In this document: positions 37,087 to 51,638 of the stretch, one piece after another | How the letters are laid out: the number at the start of each line of letters is the position of its first letter | How positions within the stretch are numbered: position 1 is the first letter of the stretch | NCBI RefSeq assembly: GCF_030063205.1 | Contig: NZ_JASISQ010000004.1 | Span: 124,001 to 188,000, forward strand | Source: Arthrobacter antibioticus | GTDB lineage: Bacteria; Actinomycetota; Actinomycetes; Actinomycetales; Micrococcaceae | Direction: 5' to 3' | DNA: 64,000 nucleotides | Position numbers and translations under genes: made by a program | The notes under the pieces: generated by a model | The model's input: only the letters and a program-made list of their open reading frames with translations | Databases searched by the model: none | What the model was told of the DNA's origin: nothing

Positions 37087-37853
37087 TGGCAGCGCCAAAC
37101 CTAGCGACCTCTGAGCTGACTCTCACCGGACGGATCACAACGGCTTCAAACGCTACATTCCTGGGCAGCATCGGCGATGTGGTGGTGGTCTACAAGCCGA
37201 TAGCTGGGGAAAATCCGCTGTGGGATTTTCCGCACGGAAGTCTGGCTCATCGGGAGGTGGCCGCATATCTAGTCTCGCAGGTCTTCGGCGGCGACGTGGT
37301 GCCGCATACTTGGCTGCGCGATGGTCCACTGGGCGAAGGCATGGTGCAACTCTGGCAGGAGCAAGACCCCGCCCAAAACGCCGTCGACCTTATCGCAACG
37401 GACCTTGTGCCGGAGACAGGCTGGAAATACGTTCTCGAGGGACGCGGCGAGAACGGGCAGATGGTTGCGCTCGTTCACGAAGACTCACCAGCGCTGCGAC
37501 GTATGGCGGTGCTGGACATCATCATCAACAACGCCGACCGCAAAGGCGATCACATACTTTCGATGGCTGACGGACTCCGGCACGGTGTGGACCACGGCCT
37601 CACCTTTCACCGTGACCACAAGCTGCGCACGGTTCTGTGGGGATGGGTGGGAGAGGATCTAAGCGCTAAGGAACTCGACGGCATAGATCGTGTCAGCCAA
37701 GGACTTCACGGTGAGCTGGGGCGAAATTTGACGGACTTACTCAGCGCCGAAGAAATCGCGTCACTAGCCGCGCGTTGCGCCCGGTTGCGCTTGGCAGGGC
37801 AGTTTCCGGCTCCAAGCGGTGAGATGTCAGCGGTTCCTTGGCCGCTTTTCTAA
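37086..37853 (+). CDS. SCO1664-family kinase-like protein
   Basis: 255 residues, start ATG 37086 fixed by the TGATG overlap with the DUF3090 gene. It resembles the phosphatidylinositol 3/4-kinase-like fold: VVVYKPIAGE is the ATP-lysine region, and the catalytic-loop-like part is DIIINNADRKGDHIL, followed by HGVDHGLTFH as metal loop. The target is unknown. It is the last conserved core gene before the island begins. Confidence 0.88.
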   Translation: MAAPNLATSELTLTGRITTASNATFLGSIGDVVVVYKPIAGENPLWDFPHGSLAHREVAAYLVSQVFGGDVVPHTWLRDGPLGEGMVQLWQEQDPAQNAVDLIATDLVPETGWKYVLEGRGENGQMVALVHEDSPALRRMAVLDIIINNADRKGDHILSMADGLRHGVDHGLTFHRDHKLRTVLWGWVGEDLSAKELDGIDRVSQGLHGELGRNLTDLLSAEEIASLAARCARLRLAGQFPAPSGEMSAVPWPLF

Positions 37854-37931
37854 GGGAATGACGGTCCTGGCTTCCCAGACTGCGCCCCGTTGAGTCACCC
37901 TCTCTACCGGTCAGCCCGTGGCAATAGGTGT

Positions 37932-37965: not shown

Positions 37966-37985
37966 CGGTACAAGTTTCAGGCAGT

Positions 37986-38022
37986 CCAGCGGCTCAGACG
38001 TTGAAGCGGAACTCCACCACGT
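37986..38022. other. att-like site A1 (copy of the ychF 3' end)
   Basis: 37 bases identical to the 3' end of ychF at 50545-50581, including the stop codon and 8 bases beyond it. Read on the minus strand it encodes VVEFRFNV and a stop. It marks the distal end of the island. With copy A2 the identity extends 5 bases further left (GCAGT). Confidence 0.85.
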
Positions 38023-38409
38023 TCCGTAATCGAATAATCTTTGGGCCGCCGGTTCACTCTCAGCAACCTTCTATCCTCCGGCCTCCAACTCATCTGATTT
38101 CTGTTCTCCGCACGACGTCGGCTCAAAACGCTCAGCCACGCCGCATCCTACAACTCCATTTTCCGAAAATCGCACCAATAACACTTTTTACCGCTAGTCC
38201 GCTGTGAACACCCGATGTTCATCCCGACCCGGTAAGCGTCCGACTCCGGAACGGCCTAAGCACAGTTCCTGCCGCTCGTCCCACGTAGACTCCGCCGCAA
38301 CGACTCCTCCAACTGATCCGCCAGTACCAGCAATCCAGTTTCAGATTGATTTGGCAACCTGTGCCATTACGTCGCGCGCGGTTCCGTTCGACGTTCCCGG
38401 CCACCTAAA

Positions 38410-38979
38410 GTGAGCTTTGGATTCCAGCAGCTCAAGCCCGTACCTGAACCAGAACCATCCATGTCCTTTCTACTGTCCATGGTGATTGCCGTTGTGACCT
38501 TGATCATCGCCTGGATGACATTCAAGGTGTCGAAGGAGAGCAGAATTGTGGCCGAGCAAGGCCACAGGACGTCACAGGAGTCCCTACAAGTGGCCAGCAA
38601 CGGCTGGAAGCAGGTGGGCCGTGAAGAGCCGTGGTCCCTTACCAAGCTAGATAAGAACAACTGACCCCTGGAACACCTGCACTATAGCCCTGCTGCCATT
38701 GTTGCTGCGGCTGAAGCGTCGCCACTTTTCAGAGGCTCTCCTGTGAACTTCCAAAACCCTGCCGGGGCACCGGTGTCAATCTCCCGCAGCGGAGCAAAAG
38801 TTGTCCTGGAAATTCCGTCAACGAACCCGGGCGCCTCCCTCACCCTGTATTACCGTGAGTTCGCTGAGACCGAAGCTGTTCCGACATGGAATCAGCTGTA
38901 CTTTGCCGGCAACGACTGGACGACGGCCCAGTACTGCGCAGCTTGGGGCTTCTGCCACCGCCCCACCACGTCGCCTTAG
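38410..38979 (+). pseudogene. Broken copy of the island membrane-protein gene
   Basis: Same frame and sequence as the intact gene at 42441-43124. It is interrupted by TGA at 38662-38664, where the other copy has TGG in YWLLE. Relative to the intact copy it lacks 33 residues before the membrane helix and a short repeat (VAEQS-type) after it, both in frame. The normal stop has become a sense codon, adding about 14 residues. The start is GTG here and ATG in the intact copy. Probably no functional product. Confidence 0.85.
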
Positions 38980-39131
38980 CCGCCTAGCCTCAGACTAAGG
39001 TTTCACCCTGCCAATTTGTCACGGAGCCACTGTCTGTTCGAATCGCGATACCGAAAGCCCCGAGATTAGCTCGGGTGGCGAAGCACCGACACCAAAGCTT
39101 GTGTCAAGCCCCGGGATTGGTGGAGGGTTTA

Positions 39132-39263
39132 TTAGACCCGTTCCAGCGTTTTGAGGGCAGGTAGATTTGAGTTGTAGTTGGCTTCTTCTTCGACTGGCGG
39201 GATCTATCCGATTTCTCCGTGGAGTCGTCGGTGGTTGTACAAATCGATGTACTCGTCGACGCC
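39132..39263 (-). mobile_element. IS3-family transposase remnant (3' end of orfB)
   Basis: On the minus strand the frame reads EYIDLYNHRRLHGEIG, then a TAG at 39204-39206, then IPPVEEEANYNSN and a TAA. This is the C-terminus of an IS3-type transposase. The upstream part and both terminal repeats are gone. It lies just after the end of the direct repeat and shows past insertion activity. 39264-39366 holds nothing recognisable. Confidence 0.8.
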
Positions 39264-39366
39264 TAAGCATAGGCATCTGCCGAGCGTACCGCACGAGCCG
39301 GCAGCCACGGCTGTGGCATCAACGGCCCAGACGAGAAATGAGCGATCCGCCCAATTTATGCTCTAG

Positions 39367-40029
39367 CTAATCGATGATCCTGACGGCGTCGATTACGTCC
39401 GCGGCGTGCAGTCGGTGCACCGTGGCCTGCCAGTAGTCTCTTGTGCCAAAATTCGTACTGTCGAAGATGCACCCCCAGGACTGCTCGGCCTCCTCAACCA
39501 AGGCTGCGGGCCACTGACTGATCGGAGTGTTGACCACGCCGGCGGCCTTGAGACGCGCATGGAAGCCGTCGTAAATCTGATCCCAACGCTTATCGAACTC
39601 GTCTTCTGGCTCTCCTGGCCACTTCGGGATCGCCAGAGTCGAGTTGAGCACGGAATGCCATTCATCGAAGTGCGACAGAAGGACCCTTTCCCGAGGAATC
39701 CTGCAGGTCAGCAGGACCTGGCTCCGAGCACGACGACAGTCTGCGACCAGATCGACCCGTCGAATCTTTGCCCACAACCACAGCGCAGCATCACCAGACG
39801 TGGGCAACTGCGCTGCCATCATCCGGCCCATCCAACCATACGCCTCTGACAAGAACGGATCCGCCAGAGCCGAGTCCGGCCACAACACCTCTGTTGTCAA
39901 CAGTTCCTCGAACGCGGCACGCGTCTGGATCGTGTGCAGGAGTAAAACGTCAGCGTGCAGGTCATGGGCGAGCCTGCCCGGAGGTACAGCCGTCTCTGGC
40001 GCAGCGGATCGAATCGGAAACGGTGGCAT
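39367..40029 (-). CDS. DUF3841 protein
   Basis: 220 residues. LLHTIQTRAAFEELLTTEVLWPD, then FLSEAYGWMGRMM, LWLWAKIRRVDL and RVLLSHFDEWHSVLN are the DUF3841 landmarks. The family has no known function and is scattered in bacteria. The start is placed at ATG 40029 (MPPFPIRS), where similarity begins; the frame stays open to 40296 but would cross the divergent gene. It faces a small zinc-ribbon-like gene across a 67-base gap with an inverted repeat. Confidence 0.75.
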   Translation of the reverse strand: MPPFPIRSAAPETAVPPGRLAHDLHADVLLLHTIQTRAAFEELLTTEVLWPDSALADPFLSEAYGWMGRMMAAQLPTSGDAALWLWAKIRRVDLVADCRRARSQVLLTCRIPRERVLLSHFDEWHSVLNSTLAIPKWPGEPEDEFDKRWDQIYDGFHARLKAAGVVNTPISQWPAALVEEAEQSWGCIFDSTNFGTRDYWQATVHRLHAADVIDAVRIID

Positions 40030-40049
40030 GAGCACTATTCTGCCGTACC

Positions 40050-40076
40050 GCACCGACAACCCTTGCTTGTCGGTGC
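40050..40076. promoter_or_regulatory. Inverted repeat between divergent island genes
   Basis: GCACCGACAA (40050-40059), seven bases, then the exact complement TTGTCGGTGC (40067-40076). It sits in the middle of the 67-base gap between the DUF3841 gene and the zinc-ribbon-like gene, so it could be an operator serving both promoters. Confidence 0.55.
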
Positions 40077-40096
40077 TTCCGACTAGAGTTACCGTC

Positions 40097-40315
40097 ATGA
40101 GCAAAGATAATTTGGACATCGTAAAAATAGAAGAAGCGATCCTCCAGAAAGAAGAGGACATGAAAGCCTGGTGCCCGTCCAGTGGTGAGAACGTGGGCCG
40201 CATGATCGAGTCCTCCGCCACCGACAACTGGTACATCGCGTGCCCCACCTGCGGGGTGCGGTGGGCCGGTGGAAGTACAGTGCTTTCCGACCACACAAGG
40301 CCGGGCTACCGGTGA
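40097..40315 (+). CDS. Small zinc-ribbon-like protein
   Basis: 72 residues. An acidic/basic N-terminal helix (DIVKIEEAILQKEED) precedes WCPSSG and CPTCGVRW, which could bind a metal with three cysteines. It starts at ATG 40097 and diverges from the DUF3841 gene. No family is recognised. Between its end and 40506 only broken coding traces are seen. Confidence 0.5.
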   Translation: MSKDNLDIVKIEEAILQKEEDMKAWCPSSGENVGRMIESSATDNWYIACPTCGVRWAGGSTVLSDHTRPGYR

Positions 40316-40506
40316 TCAACATCGAATAAGCCGAGGCTGGGATCATCCAACGGCGGTGAGACACTGCACCGACGGGAGCAAAGTCGAGCCGGAAATTCCC
40401 CTATCGTCCGTGGCCGTGAGTTCGCTGGGTGGGAACCTGCTCAGCCGCTGTCGAATAAAGGCAAACGAAAGGCGGAGCGAATCGAACACGCGCGGAACAC
40501 GTCTGA

Positions 40507-41121
40507 CTACGAGACCCGCTTGTTCGACTGGATCGAAAACTCTGGGGACTCACTTGCCGGGTACGAATCGTACGTCTTGTCTATGATCTCGCCCTTTAGC
40601 GGGATCAGCATCCCAGCGACGGCGAGAAGTTCCTCCTTGTCATCGAGCTCGGGTTCGTTAGCGTCGCCGATCTCGGTATGACCAAGCTCGAACCTTACTG
40701 TGCACCACTGTCTGCCTCGATAGTCGAGCTTCGCGTCGAAGGGTTGCATGACGTACACCGTGGGAACGGCTGGCGGTCGAGGTGCGGCTTTCTCTACCAA
40801 TCGCCCGGTGAACCCAGCCTAACCTTCCTCCAAGGCAGCCTAGAAATCGCTGTGGAATTGAGCCAGTGTCTGGTTCCGTGCGGCGTCGAGGTCCTTGGTA
40901 AACCGCGTCCCCTACCCATCACGCAGCGCCATAGCGCTACCATCCTTGATTACTCCCCCGGGGAGCGGCTGGCCAACGACGACCAAGGCCATGCAGATCC
41001 TACGCCGTTGGGCCAACCCGTCGTCACCTTCGATGGTGCGGATTCGTCGCTCTAAGGAGTGCATATTCGTCCGCGTGTCCGTGTACGTCACTTCTTGAGT
41101 CCTTTTTTCACTCACTGCCAT
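40507..41121 (-). pseudogene. AbiEii-like nucleotidyltransferase toxin with three in-frame amber stops
   Basis: One continuous frame of about 205 codons, interrupted by TAG at 40912, 40840 and 40819. Read through, it gives VIKDGSAMALRDG, TRFTKDLDAARNQTLAQF, GFTGRLVEKAAPRPP and YVMQPFDAKLDYRGRQWCTVRFELGHTEIGDA, matching AbiEii/AbiGii toxins. The nucleotidyltransferase GG has become DG. The C-terminal part after GDANEPE does not look like the family, so the 3' end is probably replaced. The start overlaps the AbiEi antitoxin stop by 10 bases, as in working operons. Confidence 0.8.
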
Positions 41122-41630
41122 TCGGTGGTAGTTAACAACCCTTCCGCCCGCGCCTCTTTAGTGGCATTCACTAGGCGTTCAGTCTCGACACGCCCAGGAC
41201 ACTCAAGGAGAGCATCGGCAACGCGTTGCGCGGCAAGTCCCTCATAGACAGTCCTAGGTGCGCCCCCTCTCACCTGTGTCAGTTCAACGAATGAGGGCAG
41301 CTTCGGCCGCGCGCGTCGCGGAACGGCCACTTTGATCCGGCGAGGGTTGACATCGGCGAGCCCGAAGAAGGCCAGCACCGATTCCCCATGGAGGTATGCA
41401 CCCTCACCTACACGCAGGAGAGCCTCAGCAAACTGGTCATAACGGGTGGGTGGGACGTCCGGCACGCGGTACAGTCCGTAAGCGACATTCTCCAAACCGC
41501 CCCTAGCGGCCAGTTTGGGGAGCTCAACCGCGGGAACGCCTGCCTCGATAGCTTCTTTTGTGCTGACATACCCGTAATGATCGAGCGCTAGCTCACGCAC
41601 GATGTCTCGGTACTTCGCGCCTGCAACCAT
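41112..41630 (-). CDS. AbiEi-family antitoxin
   Basis: 172 residues from ATG 41630 (MVAGAKYRDI); the frame is open to 41681. It carries the AbiEi winged-helix domain (YVSTKEAIEAGVPAVELPKLAARGGLENVAYGLYRV) and the C-terminal antitoxin part (EALLRVGEGAYLHGESVLAFFGLADVNPRRIKVAVPRRARPKL). In type IV systems this protein represses its own operon and neutralises the nucleotidyltransferase AbiEii. The toxin gene next to it is broken, so this is an orphan antitoxin. Confidence 0.85.
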   Translation of the reverse strand: MVAGAKYRDIVRELALDHYGYVSTKEAIEAGVPAVELPKLAARGGLENVAYGLYRVPDVPPTRYDQFAEALLRVGEGAYLHGESVLAFFGLADVNPRRIKVAVPRRARPKLPSFVELTQVRGGAPRTVYEGLAAQRVADALLECPGRVETERLVNATKEARAEGLLTTTEWQ

Positions 41631-41636
41631 GTTACA

Positions 41637-41656
41637 ACTAAACCGAAATCGGTAGT
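41637..41656. promoter_or_regulatory. Dyad upstream of the AbiEi gene
   Basis: ACCGA-AA-TCGGT with outer ACT/AGT, seven bases before the AbiEi start. AbiEi proteins are known to bind inverted repeats in their own promoter, so this is a candidate autoregulatory site. Confidence 0.45.
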
Positions 41657-41951
41657 GTTGTGACGAGCCAGCGCTTTTCATGACGATCTATAAAACTAAG
41701 GAATACAAGCTTGGAGAGGACAGCGCCGTCAAGTATAAGTGCCACAACCAGAAGTTCTTTGACGGTGCTGAAAACACTTGGGACGAAGCCGAGGAAGTCG
41801 TGGAATCGTGAGGTGCTGACTATCCGATCACGTTTGATTGGCTTAAGCAATACCTATGAGCCCAGCGTCAGCAGGATGCACCATTTCAAGGCCACACGGT
41901 GTCAGATAAACCAATGATTTGCCACCCATCTTAGGCCACACTAGCGGACTA

Positions 41952-41986
41952 AGACGCCCTGGATGCTCGAAGCATCCAGGGCGTCT
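41952..41986. terminator. Strong hairpin before att-like site A2
   Basis: AGACGCCCTGGATGCT (41952-41967), loop CGA, exact complement 41971-41986. It lies 11 bases outside att-like copy A2. In ychF orientation it would be a terminator directly after the ychF-like end. The stretch 41657-41951 has only a 43-codon ORF of doubtful status (41680-41811). Confidence 0.85.
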
Positions 41987-41997
41987 CACAAAGCAGT

Positions 41998-42034
41998 CCA
42001 GCGGCTCAGACGTTGAAGCGGAACTCCACCACGT
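41998..42034. other. att-like site A2 (copy of the ychF 3' end)
   Basis: 37 bases identical to the ychF end at 50545-50581 and to A1. It separates the AbiE-containing segment from the DUF5677-containing segment. On the minus strand it encodes VVEFRFNV and a stop. Confidence 0.85.
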
Positions 42035-42440
42035 TCAATAATCGAATAACCTTTGGGCCGCCGATTCGCCCTCAGCAACCTTCCCTCCTCCGGCCGCCAA
42101 CTCATCTGATTTCTGTTTTTTTCACACCTTGTTGGCTCAAAACGCTCAGCAACGCCGCGCCCTACCGCGCCGTTTTCCGAAAATCGCACCAACAACACCT
42201 TTTTACCACTAGTCGGTTGCGAACGCCTGATGTTCATCCCGACCCGGTAAGTGTCCGACTCCGGAATGGCCTAAGCACAGTTCCTGCTGCGGTTGCTTGT
42301 CCCATGTAGACTCCGCCGGAGTCCGCCGCAACGCCTCCTCCGACTGATCCTGCACTACCAGCAATCCAGTTTCCTATTGATTTGGCAACCTGTGCCATCA
42401 CGTCGCGCGCGGTTCTGTTCGACGTCCCCGACCACCTAAA

Positions 42441-43124
42441 ATGAGGTTTGGATTCCAGCAGCTCAAACCCCTACCTGAACCAGGACTATCCATGCATTTT
42501 CTACTGCCCATGTCGCTCGCCCACCTCTTGGTGACACAGGAGACCAAAAATGCTGTGATCGCATTCTTGGACACGTCCGTGCATTTCATCTCGGGCGCAC
42601 TGCCCACGGTGATTGCCGTTGTGACCTTGCTCATCGCCTGGATGACATTCAAGGTGTCGAGGGAGAGCAAGCTCGTCGCAGAGCAGAGCAGAATTGTGGC
42701 CGAGCAAAGCCACAGGACTTCACAGGAGTCCCTACAAGTGGCCATCAACGACTGGAAGCAGGTAGGCCGTGAAGAGCCGTGGTCCCTTACCAAGCTGGAT
42801 AAGAACTACTGGCTGCTGGAACGCCTGCACTATAATCCTGCTGCCATTGTTGCTGCTGAAGCGTCGCCACATTGCGGAGGCTCTGCTGTGAACTTCCAAA
42901 ACCCTGCCGGGGCACCGGTGTCGATCTCCCGCCGCGGAGCAAAAGTTGTCTTGGAAATTCCGTCAACGAACCCGGGCGCCTCCCTCACCCTGTATTACCG
43001 TGAGTTCGCTGAGTCCGAAGCTGTTCCGACTCGGAATCAGCTGTATTTTGCCGGCAACGCCTGGTCCGACGAAGGCGTTGCTGCCAGGGATGGCTCCAAC
43101 GACTGGACAACGGCCCTGTACTGA
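42441..43124 (+). CDS. Island membrane protein, intact copy
   Basis: 227 residues. A hydrophobic region at about 34-75 (the helix TVIAVVTLLIAWMTFKV is clearest) is followed by a short repeat, SRESKLVAEQSRIVAEQS, of coiled-coil character. A soluble C-terminal half contains REEPWSLTKLDKNYWLLERLHYNPAAIV. No known family is recognised. The layout of membrane anchor, coiled coil and soluble domain suits a sensor or a membrane-acting effector. The start may be ATG 42441 or an internal Met; no good ribosome site is seen. A broken paralogue lies 4 kb upstream. Confidence 0.6.
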   Translation: MRFGFQQLKPLPEPGLSMHFLLPMSLAHLLVTQETKNAVIAFLDTSVHFISGALPTVIAVVTLLIAWMTFKVSRESKLVAEQSRIVAEQSHRTSQESLQVAINDWKQVGREEPWSLTKLDKNYWLLERLHYNPAAIVAAEASPHCGGSAVNFQNPAGAPVSISRRGAKVVLEIPSTNPGASLTLYYREFAESEAVPTRNQLYFAGNAWSDEGVAARDGSNDWTTALY

Positions 43125-43316
43125 GTAGCTTGGGGCTAGCCACCGCCCCCACCACGTCGCCTTAGCCACCTAGCCTCAGGCTACGGTTTCACTGTGCCGA
43201 GTTGTCACGAGGCCACTGTCCGTTCGAATCGCGATGCCGAAAGCCACGAGATTAGCCCGGGCGGCGAAGCACCGACGCCAAAGCTCGCACTTCCCGCATA
43301 GCCACATATAGAAACG

Positions 43317-44987
43317 TCACGAGTCCAGACCCTCATCGCCAGATGCCACTGATGGCTCGTCGGCGTTGTCCATCCAGGCGAAGGCTTCACTTACTGCGTC
43401 CTTGTCAGTCCCCAGGATGCCCAGTCCCGCGCGCACGAGCGAGTAGAACTGCTCAACCCAAGAAGCAGCTAGCTCAACGTTGCCACCCGGGTTCAGGGCG
43501 ATGCTAGGAATGAGGTGCATTCCGTGGAGAACATTCAAACAAGGCTCCATTGCGTGCGTTTCGACTGACCACCATTCCGAGTGCACTACCCCACTAGACA
43601 GGGAGTATGCCTGTCGGTAGAAGTCCAACATGCCGGCGTCCTCCGCCATCGCACGAATCGACTTGCCCTCTGCAAAGGTGTCGCGAGTATCAACTGTCCG
43701 GTAATCGAGCACGTCGTGATTGCGGCTGAGGCGCTGAAGCTCGTCGATGCTCTCTCGAAAGCCCTCGGTTCGCGCATCGTCAGGCAACTCATCCGAGATG
43801 CGTGCGTAGAGCTTCGCCTTCCCTGCTCCATATTCTTGGAACTGTCTATAGATGGCCGGATCCTGCCGTGCCATCCAGTGGAGATAGATCTTTGTCTCCA
43901 CCAACATGCGCCCGATATGCGCACCATGTTCCATGCACCACAAATCGGGAGCCCCCAGCACCGCCATGACATCACGCCCTGCGCGGGACACAAGCCCGGA
44001 AATGACTTCCTGCCGTTCGTTGTCATACAGGTGGGCCGGGGCGGTCTCCAGCGCCTCAACGAAGCTGCTCATAACATCCATCGTGAACCCGCGCAGATTC
44101 TCGCCGCCCGCGGGCACGGAAGTCGGCTCAGTTTGATCGGAGCTGACGGCTGATGCAGCTTGCCCGTCAAGTTCGCCGTCGGTCGACTCCGTAGGGCCGT
44201 CGTCGGGACTGTCGACATCCCCCTTCCGAATACACCCGGATGTCATAGAGTTTGCTCCCCAAAACACACGTGCCCACTTGATCGCTTCATCGAAGTAGTT
44301 CGGATCATCGACTTGCAGTATCGCTTTGTGGGCACCCCAGGAAGCACGCACCAGGGAATCTGATGCCGCTCGGTTGGCCAAATTGCCCGGATAATCTTTT
44401 AGAAGCTCGATCGTTCGAGTGTCAGCACTGAAAGTTCCTGCTTGAACCGCACTCCATGTTCGCAAGCACTTCAGGAGCGCCTCGCGGTGACCATCGCGCA
44501 AGACTGATAGCAGCGCATCTCTAATCAGTTCGAGGGCCGGCCGCTCCGGTGGTACGACCTCGGTGTCGTCGACAAGCCACGGAGCCGGCAAACATGGGTA
44601 CGAGGCCAGCGCGCTGCGAACGACTTCAGAGAGTAGGCAATGTCGATGGGCTTCGTCAACGATGATCTCGGATGCGTCAGGAAACTTCACGGCCAGTGCA
44701 GCCAAGTGCGTGAGGCGTCCGTCTAGCGCTTCCGCGACCGATACTTCATCTCCATGGTGCGCAAGTCGTTCCTGTACAGCTTTCTGCCACTTCACGAAAT
44801 ACCGGAAACTGGCATCACCCTGCTCAGCCAGGACAAGTGCGGGCCAGAGGAGATCTGGGAAGTCGTCCTTGATCCAGTTCCCCATAGCCAACATCCCGGT
44901 CGCTGCGAGCGGGGTTTTGAACACGCGGCCCTTTCGCACATGGCCGTCCATAGGCCCTGAGTGTTGGTTTGCCTTAGGAATGCTCAT
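43317..44987 (-). CDS. DUF5677 domain protein
   Basis: 556 residues in two parts. The N-terminal 250 residues are helical and unassigned (MGNWIKDDFPDLLWPALVLAEQGDASFRYFVKW). An acidic, low-complexity linker follows at about 255-300, then a DUF5677 domain at about 335-515 (HIGRMLVETKIYLHWMARQDPAIYRQFQEYGAGKAKLYARI, later SSGVVHSEWW). DUF5677 proteins are helical, often lie in mobile or defence regions, and have no proven activity. No membrane helix or signal. It converges on the membrane-protein gene, with about 190 bases between. Confidence 0.75.
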   Translation of the reverse strand: MSIPKANQHSGPMDGHVRKGRVFKTPLAATGMLAMGNWIKDDFPDLLWPALVLAEQGDASFRYFVKWQKAVQERLAHHGDEVSVAEALDGRLTHLAALAVKFPDASEIIVDEAHRHCLLSEVVRSALASYPCLPAPWLVDDTEVVPPERPALELIRDALLSVLRDGHREALLKCLRTWSAVQAGTFSADTRTIELLKDYPGNLANRAASDSLVRASWGAHKAILQVDDPNYFDEAIKWARVFWGANSMTSGCIRKGDVDSPDDGPTESTDGELDGQAASAVSSDQTEPTSVPAGGENLRGFTMDVMSSFVEALETAPAHLYDNERQEVISGLVSRAGRDVMAVLGAPDLWCMEHGAHIGRMLVETKIYLHWMARQDPAIYRQFQEYGAGKAKLYARISDELPDDARTEGFRESIDELQRLSRNHDVLDYRTVDTRDTFAEGKSIRAMAEDAGMLDFYRQAYSLSSGVVHSEWWSVETHAMEPCLNVLHGMHLIPSIALNPGGNVELAASWVEQFYSLVRAGLGILGTDKDAVSEAFAWMDNADEPSVASGDEGLDS

Positions 44988-45482
44988 ATCAGGAATCTAC
45001 CTGACTTGATCCGACATAGCTGTTGGTGACCACCGGCATCGATTTTGCGACAGCCTCCCGCGGATTGCCACGAACGTGAAGAGCATCTAAGTCCGCTGGG
45101 TTCATTCGAGCTAAGAGACCCGCAGTCGAATGCGTTAGTGCCCAGAGGCCAAAACGCGAGTCTAAACTCCACCACGTCGCCGCACATAACAACCACTGAA
45201 GTGCAACGAGTCAGAGAGCCCGGACTTTGTGAGCTACCGCATGCGCACGCTAGCTCCGGCAGACAGAAGTATCTGGCGACCACGCGTCACTTGGACGCGC
45301 TTATAGGTCGCTCAATGGGTGGCAGCTCGACGCTGGTGAACGCGAAAGTACGTAGTGCTGCGAAAAACGGGCACAGTTCAAAACGCGTTCAATGCGAGGC
45401 TCCCTTCGCAGGCAACATACTGTCGTACCAGTACGTCACAATAAGGTTGTTTGAGTTGCGAAAACTGGAGTGAGGTCCGTAA
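44988..45482. other. Intergenic region with degenerate att-like site A3
   Basis: No convincing gene in 495 bases. It separates two divergent island genes, so both promoters should be here. At 45165-45182 AACTCCACCACGTCGCCG is identical to the ychF end, and CATAAC follows as in ychF. On the minus strand this encodes VMC-GDVVEFRL, compared with [12 protein letters not shown] in YchF; the codons for FR differ (TTTAGA, not TTCCGC). Confidence 0.6.
45165..45190. other. Degenerate att-like site A3
   Basis: AACTCCACCACGTCGCCG plus CATAAC, matching codons near the ychF stop apart from a small deletion. TCTAAACTCCACC (45161-45173) is also shared with site A4, but not with ychF. Confidence 0.55.
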
Positions 45483-47447
45483 TTGAGTGAAGAGGAGATG
45501 GCCCCGCGGCGGGTTAAATTTTATGGCATACATGATATGGCAACAGGTTGGCAGATCCCACGCGTAGCTGAACTTGCTGAGCGGTTCGACCCCGAGAACG
45601 TCCCGATGAACGTCGATGACATCCTTGAGCTTCACAATGTGCAGCAGTACCTCGAACAGGGGTTATTTTCGACCGCCTACGACGAAGTGGAACATAACCG
45701 GGCCAAGTCACGGATTCCCCAGATGCGTAGCACAGTAGCGCGGTTCTTTTCGGCGGTCAACAACACGAACTTTGCAGCCGTAGTAGTTGGTGTCGGCCAC
45801 GAGTATCGCGCAGACCTTCTGGATCTCCTCGGTCGGAACAATGTTTTCGAGCGCTGCGACAGCGTGGTGGTTCTTCCCGCGCTCGCCGCTACTGGTGTAC
45901 GTCTAGCTTCGATGCTCGCAAGTAAGAAGCTCGTACAAGCCTACGACACCGCGTTGCGAGACGAGCTCAGTGCATCACCTCGTGGTGCAGAGAATCTGAT
46001 TCGAAAGTATCTGCAGGAGGATGTGCGAGAAGAAATACATCTTCCAAGAAGTTTCACGTCAGTCGATGCTCGCGAATTGCTTGAGAGCTACGTCGACAGC
46101 GAGGACGCGAACCCGAACTACATCGGGCTTATTGCGATCGCTAACGAGAACACTAAGGCAGGAATCGACGCCAAGCTCAAGTTGCGAGCGAAGCGTCGCA
46201 AAGCTGAGATGAACGTGAAATACTTCAGCGAGAACGAAGGATTCAAAACTGGATACGAGGTGGGTATCTCCGACTCCCAAGATGAACCGGTCGAGTTCAA
46301 AATGGACACTTCAGATGGAATGGTCTCCCGGTACACGTTCAGCAGACAGTGGTTGGAGGAGACCATCGACAACCCCAGTATTCTCAACAACTTTCAGCAC
46401 CTGTTCGAATTTGTGGACCGTCAAGTGCTGCTGACTCTTCCGGCCTACCCGGCGAATCTGGGCGTCATGGAACGAATCATGGGTACCACTGGAAAGACCG
46501 AGTACAAGGTCGGCGCTGCGTTTCAATCCGTCGACATGGTTACCCGACTCCAGACCCGTCTGTACCTTCATTTCCTCGAGTCAAAGGACATCGACTTTGA
46601 GCATGTCATCTCCTGGTTCTTCGAGGAGTACCTCGTTGAGGAGTTCGGAGTCTCGAACTTCTCATTCAGCCCCTCAGACAGGGGAACCTCATACCTCCAG
46701 AAGGTTAGGCACGTATTCGCTGAGATAGAAAGCGTTGCAAACCAATTCACACTTTTCGTAAGGGACGGCGACCTCGACCGTGACTTGCTGGCCATGGAAT
46801 CCCTTCAGGTCCGATACAAAGAGGTACCGAGCCTCCTCAAGGGAAAGTACGTCTATCCATCCGAAGGTGAGGAGATTGTTGGCATCCTTCATCTCTTGTT
46901 CTCCGACCAGTCGTCGCTGAGTTACATCAACACGAACCTGAATGCGGACAACGCATCCATGCTTCTACTGGAAAACCGGGTGTCGTATGACGACTTTGAA
47001 GAGTATCAAAAGCCAGGCGTCGACTACCTGATTAAACATGGAGTTCTTGAGGACAACGGAGCTCAGGTTCAGTTCGTGAGCGTAGAGCAATTCCTCATCT
47101 TCAAGGCACTGTTCGACACTCAAGCAGCCAGCTACTACCACCTATCTGACGCCGGACGAGCAGAAGCGGAGACCATGGTGGCGAAGGGCTGGGTGACGCG
47201 CGGTTCCTCATTGTTGACCGAGGCCGAAGGTAAATACTTCAACTACTTTCTCAATGGGGTGGACTTCAGTAACGGGCCCCAGTTGCGCAATAAGTACCTT
47301 CATGGTTCGCAAGCCAACTCCGACGGTGAGGATGCGCACTTCACCACCTACATCACGGTACTGCGACTGATCGTGGCTTTGGTTATCAAGATGAACGACG
47401 ATTTTTGTCTCTCCTCGCTTGAGTCGAACCCGGAGGGAATCAGCTAA
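45483..47447 (+). CDS. Large protein with C-terminal HEPN-like RX4H motif
   Basis: 654 residues, no signal or membrane helix, family not recognised. The N-terminal part begins KFYGIHDMATGWQIPRVAEL. The middle is alpha/beta (FAAVVVGVGHEYRADLLDLLG). The C-terminal 100 residues end LRNKYLHG (R602 to H607), the RX4H form of the HEPN RNase motif with the common Asn after Arg, followed by a hydrophobic helix as in HEPN folds. An RNase effector is therefore inferred. TTG 45483 has GGAGTGAGG upstream; ATG 45498 is the alternative. It is alone in its segment. Confidence 0.65.
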   Translation: MSEEEMAPRRVKFYGIHDMATGWQIPRVAELAERFDPENVPMNVDDILELHNVQQYLEQGLFSTAYDEVEHNRAKSRIPQMRSTVARFFSAVNNTNFAAVVVGVGHEYRADLLDLLGRNNVFERCDSVVVLPALAATGVRLASMLASKKLVQAYDTALRDELSASPRGAENLIRKYLQEDVREEIHLPRSFTSVDARELLESYVDSEDANPNYIGLIAIANENTKAGIDAKLKLRAKRRKAEMNVKYFSENEGFKTGYEVGISDSQDEPVEFKMDTSDGMVSRYTFSRQWLEETIDNPSILNNFQHLFEFVDRQVLLTLPAYPANLGVMERIMGTTGKTEYKVGAAFQSVDMVTRLQTRLYLHFLESKDIDFEHVISWFFEEYLVEEFGVSNFSFSPSDRGTSYLQKVRHVFAEIESVANQFTLFVRDGDLDRDLLAMESLQVRYKEVPSLLKGKYVYPSEGEEIVGILHLLFSDQSSLSYINTNLNADNASMLLLENRVSYDDFEEYQKPGVDYLIKHGVLEDNGAQVQFVSVEQFLIFKALFDTQAASYYHLSDAGRAEAETMVAKGWVTRGSSLLTEAEGKYFNYFLNGVDFSNGPQLRNKYLHGSQANSDGEDAHFTTYITVLRLIVALVIKMNDDFCLSSLESNPEGIS

Positions 47448-47640
47448 ATGGAACCTGCATCGTTCGTACTGTTTCTGTGTATGCCCTCGTGGCGCGCAGA
47501 AGGACCTGCATAGAAACGAGGTTCCTTTTAGCAACGACGGCTGACGCAGACAGTCGCCGGACTGTGCGTCCCTTGTTCTAACCATCTGGCCAACTGAAGC
47601 CAGCAGGTCCCCACGACTTCTTGCCGCCGGAAATGGAAAT

Positions 47641-47673
47641 GCCTGGAATGTAAAAGCATTCCTGGCATTTTTT
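47641..47673 (+). terminator. Rho-independent terminator after the HEPN-like gene
   Basis: GCCTGGAATG and CATTCCTGGC form a 10-base stem with one T-T mismatch around loop TAAAAG, followed by ATTTTTT. It ends about 40 bases before att-like site A4. The stretch 47448-47640 holds nothing else. Confidence 0.8.
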
Positions 47674-47710
47674 ACGGTCTAGACCGAAGCGGTTCTATAC
47701 ATTAGATCTA

Positions 47711-47728
47711 AACTCCACCGCGTTCCGT
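47711..47728. other. Degenerate att-like site A4
   Basis: AACTCCACCGCGTTCCGT resembles the start of A1 (AACTCCACCACGTTCCGT), one base different. On the minus strand it reads RNAVEFRSNV followed by TAG, close to the YchF ending VVEFRFNV. The codons differ from ychF, so it looks like a diverged or foreign ychF end. Confidence 0.5.
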
Positions 47729-47914
47729 TACAGACCAACCTCTGGGATCTACAAATCTCCCGAGCCTCCGGAAAGGAGTAGATCAGTCACTTGACCCGCG
47801 GTATCGCGCACTACGCTAGCCTCGAAGCACCTCGCCACCTGGCATGGGCACCCGCATCGGAGCGGCATCAAACCGGGGGCGGGGCACACGGCGGGAGAAT
47901 CGGCCTGGTGGCGC

Positions 47915-47951
47915 TTGAGCGTCAGTGCCTTACCCTATGATTGGGATAAGG
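47915..47951 (+). promoter_or_regulatory. Putative promoter and operator of the ImmA/PIN operon
   Basis: TTGAGC (47915-47920) and TATGAT (47936-47941) are 15 bases apart. An imperfect dyad, CCTTACCC...GGGATAAGG (47928-47951), covers the -10 box. The first protein has an N-terminal HTH, so autoregulation through this dyad is plausible. The rest of 47729-47914 shows nothing. Confidence 0.45.
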
Positions 47952-48003
47952 CCACCCTCACCCCGGCCGCCGCCGCTTACTGCTACCCACGGAGGTGACC
48001 GCA

Positions 48004-49137
48004 ATGGCACGCGCACCCATCAACGGGGCCACGCTGACATGGGCACGCTCCGTCATGCACCTGAACGCCCAGGACGTAGCCAGCGCGGCTGGCACGACCC
48101 TCGAACGGACACTTGCATTTGAGTCCGGCGACGAGATGCCGACCCTCAAGCAGCTAGAGAAAATTGCTAAGAAGTTGGACCGGACCATGGCCTTCTTCTT
48201 CGCTCCTCCACCGGTGTCCACGGACGTCCCACAGACCGCTGACTTTCGTGGACGTGAAGCGGGACCCCTTCCGCCACTTCTGGCCCGCGAGATGCGCCGC
48301 GCGGAACAGCACCGTGACACCGTGCTAGACCTCCAGGGAGCCCCGGATCAGACAGCCCGAGTGAGTTCCATCGCTTGGGACTCTCACCGCAAGCGTGCCA
48401 GCGAGCTCCGTACCCAGCTCGGTCTCCGTGAGGAGTTTGTACCCCCCGAGAACGGTCAGAACCAGGTGCTGAACTTCTGGAGGGGGTTACTGGAGCACCA
48501 TGGCTACCTCGTGTTCCAGACGACTAAGGTGCCCCTCAGCACCTTCCGAGGTCTGTCCATCCAGCACGAGTCCCTGCCAATCATCATCCTCAACGGGTCC
48601 GATTCCAACAACGGCAAGGTGTTCACCCTTTTCCATGAGGTGGCACATCTCGCCAACAGAACCAGTGGCCTGTGCGACCTAGATGAGGATGTGAACGAAG
48701 AAGCCATAGCTAACGCGTTCGCAGCGAACTTCCTCATGCCCCACAAGCAGGTCACGGCAATGGTGCAGATGTTGGATGGGGAGCCGGCCGACTTGGCGTT
48801 CAAGGTGGCGGCGCGCTTCAAGGTCAGTTTCCTGGCCGCAGGCATCCGCCTCCGAACCCTGGATGTCATTGATGACGATGAATTGGAAGCCATCTGGCAG
48901 AAGAGTGACGATGTCTGGGCAAAGAGTCGAGAGGACCAGAAAGCAAGACCCGGCGGGCCCGCCCCCTGGCGCGTGCGTTACCGAGACCTGGGTAGCACCT
49001 ACATCGGCACCGTGGCACGCGCCGTGGAGGACTCCCGAGTTGACTGGATGGATGCCAGCTACCTCCTGAACGCACGCATTCCCATGGTCAGACAGATGTT
49101 TGAGGAGTATTACCGGAATGAGGGGAGTAGCCAGTGA
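48004..49137 (+). CDS. XRE / ImmA-IrrE metallopeptidase family protein
   Basis: 377 residues. Residues 5-65 are a Cro/C1-type HTH (LTWARSVMHLNAQDVASAAGTTLERTLAFESGDEMPTLKQL). The C-terminal part is an ImmA/IrrE peptidase with HEVAH in TLFHEVAHLAN and the downstream Glu in EEAIANAFAANFLMP. ATG 48004 has GGAGG eight bases upstream. The stop overlaps the start of a PIN-domain gene. HTH-ImmA proteins joined to DUF4411 PIN genes are a recurring toxin-antitoxin-like pair in which this protein should be the regulator or antitoxin. Confidence 0.88.
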   Translation: MARAPINGATLTWARSVMHLNAQDVASAAGTTLERTLAFESGDEMPTLKQLEKIAKKLDRTMAFFFAPPPVSTDVPQTADFRGREAGPLPPLLAREMRRAEQHRDTVLDLQGAPDQTARVSSIAWDSHRKRASELRTQLGLREEFVPPENGQNQVLNFWRGLLEHHGYLVFQTTKVPLSTFRGLSIQHESLPIIILNGSDSNNGKVFTLFHEVAHLANRTSGLCDLDEDVNEEAIANAFAANFLMPHKQVTAMVQMLDGEPADLAFKVAARFKVSFLAAGIRLRTLDVIDDDELEAIWQKSDDVWAKSREDQKARPGGPAPWRVRYRDLGSTYIGTVARAVEDSRVDWMDASYLLNARIPMVRQMFEEYYRNEGSSQ

Positions 49138-49595
49138 GCTACACCCTCGATTCCAACATTCTCATTAACATGGAACGGCTCTACCCTCGTGACATCTTCC
49201 CGTCACTTTGGGCTTCCATCGAAAGCCTGGTTGGCCAGGGCGAGGCCTGCATCTGTGAAGCAGTCCTCCGCGAGTTGGAGCGAGGTGATGACGACCTCCA
49301 CACCTGGGCAAAGAACCTCCACGGGTTCCTATGCACAACGCATCAAAGCGAGGTGCTGACAGTGGCGGCAATCACCCAGGCCCACCCCGGATGGGTGAGC
49401 GGGACCCAGAACGATGCCGACCCCTGGGTCATTGCCCATGGACTACAGGAGCAGCGGACAGTCGTTACCGAGGAAAACCTGAAAGGCCCCAACACCCCAG
49501 ACCGAAATCAGAAGATTCCCAACGTTGCCCTAGAACACGGGGTAGCCACCATGAAGTTCTTCGGATTTGTCAAGGCGAAGGGCTGGACCTTCTAG
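49134..49595 (+). CDS. DUF4411 PIN-like RNase toxin candidate
   Basis: 153 residues. The PIN-type acidic sites are visible: LDSNILI (residues 5-11), then EAVLRELERGDDDL, then NDADPWVIAHG and VVTEEN. The ending LEHGVATMKFFGFVKAKGW is the DUF4411 signature. The start overlaps the metallopeptidase stop by four bases (ATGA), so translation is coupled. Single-stranded RNA cleavage is the known activity of PIN toxins; for DUF4411 it is inferred. Confidence 0.85.
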   Translation: MSYTLDSNILINMERLYPRDIFPSLWASIESLVGQGEACICEAVLRELERGDDDLHTWAKNLHGFLCTTHQSEVLTVAAITQAHPGWVSGTQNDADPWVIAHGLQEQRTVVTEENLKGPNTPDRNQKIPNVALEHGVATMKFFGFVKAKGWTF

Positions 49596-49598
49596 CCG

Positions 49599-49772
49599 CT
49601 ATGCACACCGCGGAAAGAACGCGGGGGCTGGATCTTGGTTTTTCTTGATGGCCCCGTCTTCGACCATTTCACGATACTTCGCAGTCACGCTGGTGTCTGG
49701 ACGGCAGCGCCACGGAACCGCGTAGATGACGAAGCCTTCCCGAGATAGCAGGCTCCCAACCTGACCAGCTAT
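49599..49772 (-). pseudogene. Gene remnant downstream of the glycosylase gene
   Basis: An open stretch of about 57 codons on the minus strand without a clear start: GQVGSLLSREGFVIYAVPWRCRPDTS, then TAKYREMVEDGAIKKN, then a TAG. Composition looks coding, but no family is recognised. It is probably the 3' end of a lost gene; a very short real gene is the alternative. Confidence 0.35.
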
Positions 49773-49812
49773 GCGTCAACAGCATGAATCACTCGGAGAT
49801 CGATCTGCGTTG

Positions 49813-50361
49813 TTAGCGGTCCAGAAAGGCCGCCAACCCATGCCAGTAGTCGACAGGTGGCCTCTCGAGCCCATTCACTCCCTTGAGCGGCCTCGTAGCG
49901 GGGTTGGCTGAGGAAGTTGACGGCAGGACAAACACGAGGCTTTCGCCCACCGCCCAATCCTGGGGGCCGAAGTGAACGTCTCCGAAATACCCGATGAATG
50001 AACCAAAGGATGCTTCCACACCGAGCTTCCCGGCGAAAGCTACGACTTTGGGCCGGAGGGTTGTGAGGCGGTCAATCAGGCCCTTACAATCAAAGCTGTC
50101 GCTTTGCTCCTCGCTGCCATCCATGCCAGCATAGGTCTTGCTGAGGTCGGTCAGACCGATCCCAAAGACAGGCAGTAGGTGGTCGTCGGTCGGCTTCAGC
50201 AGATTTGGGGTGAACCCAGTCTCGTGTAGCCAGCGGTAAAACCGGTTGCCGCCGTTGCTGTAGTAGTGCCCGGCTTCGGCGCTCCTCTTACCGGCGGATG
50301 CGCCAACAAAGACGACGCCAAGATCGGGGCCCATGATGTCCGGAAGCTTCTCCCCCGCCAC
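49813..50361 (-). CDS. MUG-like uracil/mismatch-DNA glycosylase family protein
   Basis: 182 residues from GTG 50361, chosen because AAGGAGG lies four bases upstream; the frame stays open to 50478. Family marks: VVFVGASAGKRSAEAGHYYSNGGNRFYRWL (first active-site region) and VFVLPSTSSAN (second motif). In classical MUG the first motif reads NPG; here the Asn position is Ala (GASAG), so catalysis may be altered. It lies 180 bases from the ychF stop, inside the last island segment, convergent with the PIN gene. Confidence 0.75.
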   Translation of the reverse strand: MAGEKLPDIMGPDLGVVFVGASAGKRSAEAGHYYSNGGNRFYRWLHETGFTPNLLKPTDDHLLPVFGIGLTDLSKTYAGMDGSEEQSDSFDCKGLIDRLTTLRPKVVAFAGKLGVEASFGSFIGYFGDVHFGPQDWAVGESLVFVLPSTSSANPATRPLKGVNGLERPPVDYWHGLAAFLDR

Positions 50362-50544
50362 ACTGCCTCCTTCAGGTTGCACCGTTTCCCTCGCGAGCAA
50401 GTAGGCACGTTCTGGACCTATTATCACATGTCCAGACCATCCACCGATTCCGCATAGAGGGCGGGGCTGCAGCCGCAATTAGCCACCTCAGTCAGCACAG
50501 TGAGACCGAGCCCAACACGGACGACTCTTGCACCGCAATCGTCA

Positions 50545-50581
50545 CCAGCGGCTCAGACGTTGAAGCGGAACTCCACCACGT
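50545..50581. other. att-like site A5 (the ychF 3' end itself)
   Basis: The last 27 coding bases of ychF, its stop codon at 50553-50555 and 8 bases beyond. The same 37 bases recur at 41998 and 37986 in the same orientation. This is the chromosomal anchor of the island. No terminator hairpin follows ychF here before the glycosylase gene. Confidence 0.85.
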
Positions 50582-51638
50582 CGCCGTCGTGCATAACGTA
50601 TTCCTTGCCCTCAATACGGACCTTGCCCTTGGCCTTGGCCTCGTGCATCGATCCAGCTTCTATCAAGTCATCAAAGTGGACAACTTCAGCCTTGATGAAT
50701 CCACGCTGGAAATCTGTGTGGATAACTCCGGCTGCCTGCGGAGCTGTGTCACCCTGACGGATGGTCCACGCGCGCGTTTCTTTCGGACCTGCCGTGAGGT
50801 ACGTCTGCAAACCAAGGGTGTGGAAGCCAACGCGGGCCAGCTGATTCAGGCCTGATTCCTCTTGGCCACTCATCTCGAGCATCTCCCTAGCCTCCTCCTC
50901 ATCTAGCTCAACGAGGTCGGATTCCAGCTTGGCGTCAAGGAAAATCGCGTCTGCGGGAGCCACAAGTTCACGCAGCTCGGCTTGGCGCTCCGGGTTGGCC
51001 AGAACTGCGTCATCAACATTGAAAACATAGATGAAAGGTTTGGCCGTGAGCAGGCTGAGCTCGGCCAAGTGCTCCATCTCCAGCTTGTCGCTCTTGATGG
51101 AAGCAAAGATGGTGTCCCCGCGTTCAAGGACAGTCTGGGCGGCCAAAATTGCCTTCAACTCGGCTGCATCGCGCTGCTTGAGCTTGACAGCCTTTTCCAA
51201 GCGCGGAATCGCCTTTTCAATGGTCTGCATATCAGCCAGAATCAGCTCTGTATTGATGGTTTCCATATCGGAACGGGGGTCAACCTTACCGTCCACATGA
51301 ATAACATCGGGATCGTCGAAGACCCGGATGACCTGAGCGATCGCTTCAGCCTCGCGAATATTGGCCAGGAATTTATTGCCCAGCCCTTCCCCTTCCGAAG
51401 CGCCTTTGACAATTCCTGCGATGTCAACAAAAGACACCACTGCAGGCAGCAAGCGCTGCGAGCCGAAGATCTCAGCGAGCTTCGCCAAACGGGGATCGGG
51501 CAGGCTGACGACGCCAACATTGGGCTCGATGGTGGCGAACGGATAGTTCGCTGCGAGCACGTTGTTGCGAGTCAGTGCGTTGAAAAGAGTTGATTTGCCG
51601 ACGTTGGGCAGTCCGACGATGCCAATTGTAAGAGCCAC
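50553..51638 (-). CDS. ychF: Redox-regulated ATPase YchF
   Basis: 361-residue Obg-family P-loop protein that prefers ATP, binds ribosomes, and affects oxidative-stress responses. G1 [15 protein letters not shown] (residues 8-22), [17 protein letters not shown] (G3), NVDD (the altered G4) and a C-terminal TGS domain ([26 protein letters not shown]) are present. The C-terminus [10 protein letters not shown] is complete. Its 3' end doubles as the island's att-like site, so repeated integration has kept the protein intact. Confidence 0.95.

What the first reader, a model, noticed from the sequence alone, without database searches (positions are those of the whole stretch)
37986..50581. Tandem array of small defence-like cassettes bounded by copies of the ychF 3' end
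A 37-base sequence made of the last 29 bases of ychF (stop codon included) plus 8 following bases occurs identically at 50545 (ychF), 41998 and 37986, all in the same orientation. Integration into the 3' end of a conserved gene, regenerating that gene, is the standard signature of site-specific elements. Everything between 37.98 and 50.55 kb is accessory, and the genes are toxin/antitoxin- or defence-like: AbiE, ImmA plus PIN, a HEPN-like protein, DUF5677, DUF3841 and a DNA glycosylase. There is no integrase in the array, so the elements would have been moved in trans or have lost it. I know of no described element family that uses ychF in this way.
Basis: partly seen in the sequence, partly recalled or inferred. 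Interest (0 to 1): 0.85.

Follow-up and report, generated by a model that had tools for sequence, protein, structure and literature searches.

The report
ychF-targeted serine-integrase island array
The bacterium has a row of small, mostly defence-like gene cassettes inserted one after another at the end of the housekeeping gene ychF; relatives point to a dedicated DNA-inserting enzyme that targets this gene in many actinobacteria and gives it a new ending.

Summary
The 37-bp ychF 3' end occurs identically three times, and two decayed copies (47707, 45161) divide 37,986-50,581 into four cassettes. Near-empty sites exist (G013, G010), and 16 of 22 congeners carry extra copies, up to eight. An integrase was found in relatives: a large serine recombinase of about 505 aa. 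It lies downstream of ychF on the same contig in 18 of 19 family genomes that have it, and in all 37 of 55 named, partly overlapping actinobacterial loci where ychF is in view. Its inferred attP is an inverted repeat around GTGGTGGA. Integration replaces the YchF ending EFRFNV with tails such as EFRHGITSAAQGKK. The arm motif sits 5 bp further out in attP than in attB, as published for serine integrases. The repeats inside the window are hybrid attR sites. One 9.2-kb element is 99.97% identical in Microbacterium and Brevibacterium, whose ychF genes are 72.7% identical. How the integrase-less cassettes travel (cis-mobilised accretions?) is inferred. Closest known: Dehalococcoides ssrA islands and SCC. 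New variant of a known kind; the literature searches run found no description for ychF.

The parts
50553..51638 (-). ychF, the target gene; ends ...[10 protein letters not shown]
   Evidence: 89-99% identity in 22 other genomes of the genus
50545..50581 (-). ychF-proximal att site (B.B', i.e. attB form); core GTGGTGGA on the - strand at 50572-50579
   Evidence: B' arm motif AACGTCT at +11
47718..50575 (.). cassette D (about 2.86 kb): M78/ImmA-like protein 47995-49137(+), DUF4411 PIN-like 49134-49595(+), UDG-superfamily protein 49813-50478(-)
   Evidence: bounds are the att cores
47707..47743 (-). decayed attR (P.B'): P arm at 47722-47743, 2 mismatches to the motif; right half would read VEFRSNV*
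45172..47717 (.). cassette C (about 2.5 kb): one 654-aa protein 45483-47447(+), PADLOC PDC-S56
   Evidence: E 9.4e-249
45161..45198 (-). decayed att-like site; left arm GGTTGTTATGTGCGGCGACG (second arm type), right arm degraded
   Evidence: assignment by resemblance to other arms
42029..45171 (.). cassette B (about 3.1 kb): DUF5677 protein 43317-44987(-), orf227 42441-43124(+)
41998..42054 (-). attR (P.B'): 37-bp repeat plus P arm AAAGGTTATTCGATTATTGAAC
38017..42028 (.). cassette A (about 4.0 kb): DUF3841 39367-40296(-), AbiEi 41112-41681(-) followed by a degraded frame, orf227-like pseudogene at about 38410-38934
37986..38042 (-). distal attR (P.B'): 37-bp repeat plus P arm AAAGATTATTCGATTACGGAAC; followed by the palindrome GAACACGTGTTCTT found after ychF in the near-empty genomes
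37023..37853 (+).
37981..39099 (.). 1.1-kb module at the P end of cassette A, homologous (81-94% in pieces) to 41993-43285 at the P end of cassette B

Best explanation
The region is an accretion array of site-specific islands. A family of ychF-specific large serine integrases integrates circular elements by attP x attB recombination; attB (B.B') is the last codons of ychF. Integration gives ychF-B.P'-element-P.B'. The element's P' arm supplies a new in-frame C-terminus and stop for YchF, and the old 3' end with its terminator is displaced to the far side as attR (P.B'). Supported by sequence: the site, the integrase linkage, the arm symmetry and 5-bp rule, near-empty sites, displacement of the native downstream sequence, and exchange at the site between strains and genera. 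Inferred: the integrase-less cassettes of this window (B'-start, P-end) were carried as passengers. An integrase-bearing element at ychF excised together with its neighbours by recombining its attL with a more distal attR. It re-integrated at the attB of a new host and then left alone through the nearest attR. That leaves the passenger cassettes behind and ychF as an intact attB, ready for the next round. So the array grows at the ychF-proximal end, with mostly toxin-antitoxin or defence-like cargo here.
For: Near-empty sites in G013 and G010. Extra copies in 16 of 22 congeners. Integrase homologue (E<=1e-40) in 19 of 245 family genomes; in 18 of the 19 it is on the ychF contig, 0.07-36 kb downstream. 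P arm: 50 matches at up to 3 mismatches in the loci, 44 of them followed by the GTGGTGGA-like core, against 0 in 1.19 Mb shuffled. Motif AACCTCT best, ties counted, at +11 in 18 of 21 EFRFNV arms and at +16 in 27 of 28 other arms; Rutherford et al. PMC3783163 reports such a 5-bp shift (passages). An element's P arm matches its own P' better than those of others (21 of 20,000 permutations reach it, 18 elements). The native palindrome follows the copy nearest SCO1664 in 10 of 15 arrays, ychF in 0 of 15 and other copies in 0 of 20; background 0.2%. Same-species G019 shares 35000-42030 and ychF from 50566, all between is replaced. 9,213 of 9,216 aligned bases identical in an element of M. gubbeenense and B. 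linens, ychF 72.7%.
Against: No integrase of this family in G000 or G019 at E 1e-40, so current mobility of this array is not shown. Of P'-tailed genomes without a hit, G019, G162, G237 and G245 have no PF07508 match at all and G025, G100, G150 and G213 only elsewhere (only G151 has one downstream of ychF; G211 unclear, contig edge), so attL does not always mark an integrase. In 5 of 15 arrays the copy nearest SCO1664 is not followed by the native palindrome. Rothia aeria has the integrase 106 bp from a ychF that still ends EFRFNV. P'-oriented arms without the core also lie inside elements upstream of the integrase gene in G127, G241 and G230 (2-4 mismatches), and similar arms lie just upstream of it in G166, G214 and G209 (4 mismatches), so some arms may be integrase-binding sites of its promoter rather than att remains. 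Some att copies lie beyond the SCO1664 block. No RDF was identified, and no composite of an integrase element plus a passenger was traced between two genomes.
Confidence: 0.82

Rival explanations
1. The B'-type cassettes are mobile in their own right: the integrase, acting in trans, recombines a circle's P.B' (attR-like) site directly with attB in ychF, as in integrons or the promiscuous Ccr system of SCC (recalled), so one enzyme serves a pool of integrase-less cassettes.
For: Integrase-less arrays are commoner than integrase elements (19 integrase genomes of 245; 16 of 22 congeners with extra copies, none with the integrase among the genus members listed). Whole cassettes recur at different positions with different neighbours: a 1,166-bp cassette is first in G174, G196, G223 and G240 but second in G248; G214 cassette 2 matches G247 cassette 4. 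Serine recombinases are not always strict: TndX is said to excise and integrate without an RDF (PMC5704250 passage) and phiC31 integrase to catalyse some reverse excision (PMC11784100 abstract in the listing).
Against: Rutherford et al. [quoted passage not shown] Cassette recurrence is equally expected from passenger transfer.
Confidence: 0.22
2. Fossil accretion: each cassette was once a full integrase element that lost its integrase and P' end by deletion or by homologous replacement of the ychF 3' end; nothing in the array moves any more.
For: Decayed att copies at 45161 and 47707, a degraded frame after AbiEi and an orf227 pseudogene. No integrase of the family in G000. Truncated integrase in G214.
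Against: Loss of P' would have to restore EFRFNV* each time. Two strains of one species differ by exchange with breaks at the repeats. A cassette is 95-99.8% identical in different array positions.
Confidence: 0.2
3. A tyrosine integrase (phage-satellite type such as MulchRoom's) or XerCD moves the cassettes.
For: Satellite phage MulchRoom carries a ychF 3'-end copy about 80 bp from its tyrosine integrase gene.
Against: G223 and G240 carry arrays with only two tyrosine-recombinase hits each (XerC- and XerD-like by score), and none of the hits listed for the 14 array genomes lies inside a fetched array except a 36-position fragment near the end of G214's. Arm symmetry and the 5-bp rule point to a serine integrase.
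Confidence: 0.05
4. Repeats spread by homologous recombination or segmental duplication of ychF ends.
For: Cassettes A and B share a 1.1-kb module.
Against: Shared identity with ychF stops at the att arms, codons of the copies differ within one genome (e.g. G011), and the left arms carry a motif absent from ychF.
Confidence: 0.03

Closest known systems
Dehalococcoides ssrA genomic islands (PMC3146451, passages read)
   Same: Tandem islands downstream of one essential gene, bounded by short repeats of its 3' end; a serine recombinase (DsiB) in some; 15 islands without integration module, which the authors suggest might be cis-mobilizable by accretion.
   Different: Target is ssrA RNA, not a protein gene; one bacterial genus; cargo reductive dehalogenases; a conserved six-gene integration module. 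Here the element re-codes the protein's C-terminus and the family spans many actinobacterial families.
Staphylococcal cassette chromosome (SCC) at rlmH/orfX (recalled; Ccr mentioned in PMC3146451 passages)
   Same: Large serine recombinases, 3' end of a conserved gene, tandem composite arrays, recombinase-less members.
   Different: CcrA/B/C and rlmH; no ychF, different att.
CIME/ICE accretion, e.g. ICESt1-related elements (PMC5704250 passages)
   Same: Integrase-less elements with att ends mobilised by a tandem neighbour.
   Different: Described there for ICEs and IMEs; the original papers were not read. Here a serine integrase, with attB regenerated at ychF.
Phage-type large serine integrases LI/A118, phiC31, Bxb1 (PMC3783163, passages)
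   Same: Domain make-up PF00239+PF07508; zinc-domain motif of attB shifted 5 bp inward relative to attP.
   Different: No relative found in viral contigs (words from one alignment of ten proteins); linked to ychF.
Streptomyces satellite phage MulchRoom (PMC10690885, passages)
   Same: Carries a ychF 3'-end copy next to its integrase.
   Different: Tyrosine integrase; a find in the paper's main text gives 0 for ychF and attP.
Pneumococcal prophage next to ychF (PMC6375853, passages)
   Same: Integration beside ychF.
   Different: Integrates between dnaN and ychF, altering the ychF promoter; 14-bp att unrelated.

Membership tests
Large serine integrase islands | Integrase with Resolvase and Recombinase domains | tested here: met
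   PF00239 and PF07508 in the G116 and G166 proteins; PDB matches include TP901-1 and phiC31 integrases
Large serine integrase islands | attP an inverted repeat, zinc-domain motif 5 bp further out than in attB | tested here: met
   rule from PMC3783163
Large serine integrase islands | Integrase encoded in the element itself | tested here: not met
   not met in the window's cassettes; met in relatives
Large serine integrase islands | Integrase recombines attP with the ychF site | not testable with these tools
   needs an assay
Cis-mobilizable elements (CIME) by accretion | att-bounded, no integrase or transfer genes, tandem with related element | tested here: met
   for the window (transfer genes judged from Pfam only); integrase element followed by such cassettes in G166, G116 and G214
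Cis-mobilizable elements (CIME) by accretion | Co-excision and co-transfer with an integrase element | not testable with these tools
   no composite transfer traced
SCC | ccr recombinases and insertion at rlmH | tested here: not met
   target is ychF; relation of the integrase to Ccr not tested
Dehalococcoides ssrA islands | Integration at ssrA | tested here: not met
   target is ychF
Integron cassette arrays | Tyrosine integrase IntI next to the array and attC hairpins | tested here: inconclusive
   no intact tyrosine recombinase seen in fetched arrays, but the genus list was truncated; the att fits a serine-integrase site; hairpins were not folded

The most novel reading that the evidence does not exclude
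A serine-integrase counterpart of the integron: one ychF-specific enzyme, resident or transient, serves a phylum-wide pool of integrase-less cassettes whose P.B' sites recombine directly with the ychF attB. Each cassette brings a replacement YchF 3' end, and strains thereby exchange defence modules in order at one locus.
Probability: 0.22. Interest if true: 0.88.

Novelty: new variant of a known kind. Interest (0 to 1): 0.66.

Why it matters
It gives actinobacteria a named, searchable hot spot where toxin-antitoxin and candidate defence genes collect, with exact borders, so new defence genes can be sought by reading what lies between att copies. The integrase family comes with predicted attP and attB sites at a conserved gene, which may be useful for genome engineering. 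The target protein's C-terminus is rewritten at insertion, which makes effects on YchF testable. The array makes cis-mobilisation by a serine integrase testable.

Tried and rejected
Tyrosine integrase in the arrays: PF00589 hits of 23 genus genomes (list truncated) and of 14 array genomes gave none inside fetched arrays beyond one fragment. Integrase relatives in viral contigs: none confirmed. Exact patterns in viral contigs: 0 and 1 hits. Plasmid and phage collections: three plasmid records and four phage records match part of the 49-base site; Nocardia farcinica NZ_LN868939 shows tandem copies. Pfam and PADLOC scans took 75 + 135 of the 278 array ORFs (ORFs judged chromosomal or doubtful were left out) and list only the 25 commonest families, so single hits may be hidden. 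An early idea that CGGAAC-GTGGTGGA-GTTCCG was a tyrosine-recombinase core was dropped. The tblastn parts of three scripts failed on bad input and were redone. The first arm test (21 elements, 2 of 20,000) used three hand-entered arms (G166, G214, G209) that may not be attR; without them it is 21 of 20,000 for 18 elements, and 42 of 20,000 for 17 after dropping a genome present twice. I first read the arms beside the integrase gene in G166, G214 and G209 as decayed attR; one search shows similar arms in the other orientation in G127, G241 and G230, so that reading is withdrawn as unproven. The cheese-rind papers PMC6579920 and PMC5526665 were checked by a find for ychF: 0 occurrences. The 49 ychF ends were chosen for arrays or unusual tails, not at random. 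Absence from the literature rests only, in open-licence papers; catalogues of serine integrases may hold these enzymes.
Full report
1. Observation. The 37-bp repeat is exact at 37986, 41998 and 50545; a genome-wide pattern search (3.79 Mb, up to 3 mismatches) finds only these places. A scored att scan (0 hits in about 120 kb of shuffled sequence) adds a decayed copy at 47707; a further partial copy at 45161 was found by repeat search and BLAST. The span therefore holds four cassettes: D (ImmA-like, PIN-like, UDG), C (PDC-S56), B (DUF5677, orf227) and A (AbiEi, DUF3841).

2. Relatives. All 22 other genomes of the genus searched have ychF. Between ychF and the SCO1664-like gene, or to the end of the fetched stretch, 16 of 22 have at least one further att copy (score 36 or more of 46), up to eight in G011; six have none: G010 and G013 (near-empty sites), G009, G016, G017 and G020 (contig end). 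Across 245 genomes of the family, 229 match the ychF-end pattern and many have 2 to 9 matches; in the part of the place list shown, matches of one genome mostly lie close together on one strand, and the reversed control is zero in the table. In a 396-genome sample of the phylum, 63 match the right-half pattern, and five outside the family (G518, G557, G642, G575, G300) have tandem copies.

3. Native 3' end is displaced. The two near-empty genomes carry the palindrome GAACACGTGTTCTT (0 and 2 mismatches) just after ychF. In 15 array genomes with SCO1664 in view (the window's included) it follows ychF in 0, the copy nearest SCO1664 in 10, and other copies in 0 of 20; random 100-bp stretches give 0.2%. 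So ychF now ends in imported sequence, and its own end lies at the far side in those 10; the other 5 lack the signal.

4. Strains. The same-species genome G019 shares 35000-38967 (97.1%), 38968-42030 (98.9%) and ychF (99.2% from 50566) but has a different 15 kb between, next to ychF genes that look like type I restriction-modification (read by eye from translations, not searched). The breaks fall inside the repeats.

5. The enzyme. In G166, G116 and G214 the element next to ychF encodes a serine recombinase (504 and 509 aa; about 250 aa, truncated, in G214), and YchF ends EFRHGITSA.QGKK. The changed end, GTTCCGTNNNNGAATAACCTCT, is the reverse complement of the arm AGAGGTTATTCNNNNACGGAAC that precedes internal att copies: 50 matches at up to 3 mismatches in 64 sources, 44 followed by the GTGGTGGA-like core and 4 at ychF in P' orientation; 0 in 1.19 Mb shuffled (at up to 4 mismatches 72 against 2). 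The inferred attP is thus P-GTGGTGGA-P'. Homologues at E 1e-40 occur in 19 of 245 genomes. With ychF positions, 18 of 19 lie on the ychF contig, 0.07 to 36 kb downstream; in G188 ychF is near a contig edge and the gene on another contig. In the named collection, 55 loci match, from Arthrobacter, Sinomonas, Rothia, Kocuria, Brevibacterium, Gordonia, Corynebacterium, Cutibacterium, Actinomyces, Schaalia, Bifidobacterium, Streptomyces and others; L220-L224 are partial matches (23 to 214 residues). ychF is in view in 37 (6 of them already seen), always with the integrase downstream, 34 bp to 8.7 kb; the tail is altered in 35 (one is EFRFNV, one was not read). Of the 18 without ychF in view, 7 (G166, G116, G222, G099, G053, G209, G144) have it farther downstream; the rest were not resolved.

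6. Site architecture. Sliding the motif AACCTCT (taken from the left arms) along ychF right arms gives best offset, ties counted, +11 in 18 of 21 EFRFNV arms and +16 in 27 of 28 other arms. PMC3783163 (passages) reports a 5-bp inward shift of the zinc-domain motif in attB. Internal copies combine a left arm at attP spacing with a right arm at attB spacing, hence attR. In 18 elements the P arm at the first att copy after the integrase matches the element's own P' better than those of other elements (mean 12.6 against 11.0 of 22; 21 of 20,000 permutations reach the observed sum; random 22-mers 5.7). Three (G057, L219, L214) score no better than random, perhaps because a wrong site was taken as attR.

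7. Transfer. Microbacterium gubbeenense L196 and Brevibacterium linens L206 share an element of 9.2 kb, 9,213 of 9,216 aligned bases identical, while ychF is 72.7% identical and the outer flanks reach only 55% and 46% in forced alignments. The change-over lies in GACGTGGT at ychF and CGGAACGTGGT at attR.

8. Cassettes. In 49 oriented loci, 101 intervals of 300 bp to 15 kb were cut at att copies, median 2.0 kb. Some recur in different positions: 1,166 bp first in four genomes and second in G248 (95-99.8%); G214 second against G247 fourth (91%). Some recurrent intervals are the SCO1664 block itself, which has an att copy beyond it in several genomes (SCO1664 placement). Cargo matches include PIN, Zeta toxin, Abi_2, AbiEi, TIR-TM, Avs2, DrmD and PifA but also transporters and metabolic enzymes.

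9. Mechanism. Supported by sequence: ychF-specific integration, hybrid sites, linkage to the integrase, exchange at the site. Inferred: how integrase-less B'-type cassettes travel. Canonical reactions suffice if an integrase element excises with neighbours through a distal attR and later leaves alone. This predicts integrase elements always proximal (met), P' arms with the core only at ychF (met at up to 1 mismatch; core-less P'-oriented arms near the integrase gene in G127, G241 and G230, may be promoter sites), and ychF restored to attB in integrase-less arrays (21 of 22 genus ychF ends read are EFRFNV; G019 is the exception). Direct P.B' x attB exchange is not excluded.

10. Known relatives. 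Dehalococcoides ssrA islands (PMC3146451, passages) and SCC work alike; CIME accretion (PMC5704250, passages) is the conceptual parent. Membership in the ssrA-island or SCC families is not met because the target differs. Searches for ychF with attB/integrase, genomic island, serine recombinase and integrative elements listed only pneumococcal papers among those holding ychF (the ten papers listed do not hold the YchF phrase).

Noticed in passing
L078:6514-7379 (Streptomyces satellite phage MulchRoom, OQ784832): A ychF 3'-end copy (GATGTGGTGGAGTTCCGCTTCAACGTGTGA) lies about 80 bp from the tyrosine integrase gene, suggesting an attP for ychF used by an unrelated recombinase; a find in the describing paper gives 0 for ychF.
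   Followed up: partly
L079:8709-12033 (Nocardia farcinica NZ_LN868939): Four strong att copies and one weaker in 3.4 kb on one strand, outside the family of the window.
   Followed up: partly
window 40290-41110: The stretch after AbiEi in cassette A looks by eye like a degraded AbiEii partner (interrupted frame), so AbiE is probably not intact.
   Followed up: partly
window 37981-39099 and 41993-43285: Cassettes A and B share a 1.1-kb module at the P end with orf227, a protein without Pfam match and with a hydrophobic segment by eye; the copy in A is broken.
   Followed up: partly
L046:18541, L053:18589, L040:2078, L079:8709, L084:11460: The same cassette start after the stop (TAGcgttattgacg...gtgatcagatcgttcgg), read by eye as the start of a HigB-like toxin gene (recalled, not searched), occurs in genus relatives, Nocardia and a human-gut contig.
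   Followed up: no
G127, G241, G230, G166, G214, G209 (composites): Copies of the att arm without the att core lie upstream of the integrase gene (about 10 to 50 bp, 555 bp in G230), pointing away from it in both gene orientations; possibly an integrase-binding site in its own promoter.
   Followed up: no
L068:5220, L063:16449, L088:19432, L072:12191, ychF of G067: A third right-arm class (such as EFRFAL*/EFRFSI*) with the motif at about +18 instead of +11 or +16; unexplained.
   Followed up: no
L056:9222-9878 (G001:C2): A second, partial ychF (residues 264-361, 82%) in an open frame on a 385-kb contig, possibly a plasmid.
   Followed up: no
L202 (Rothia aeria): Integrase 106 bp downstream of a ychF that still ends EFRFNV, the one read exception among 37 loci.
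   Followed up: no
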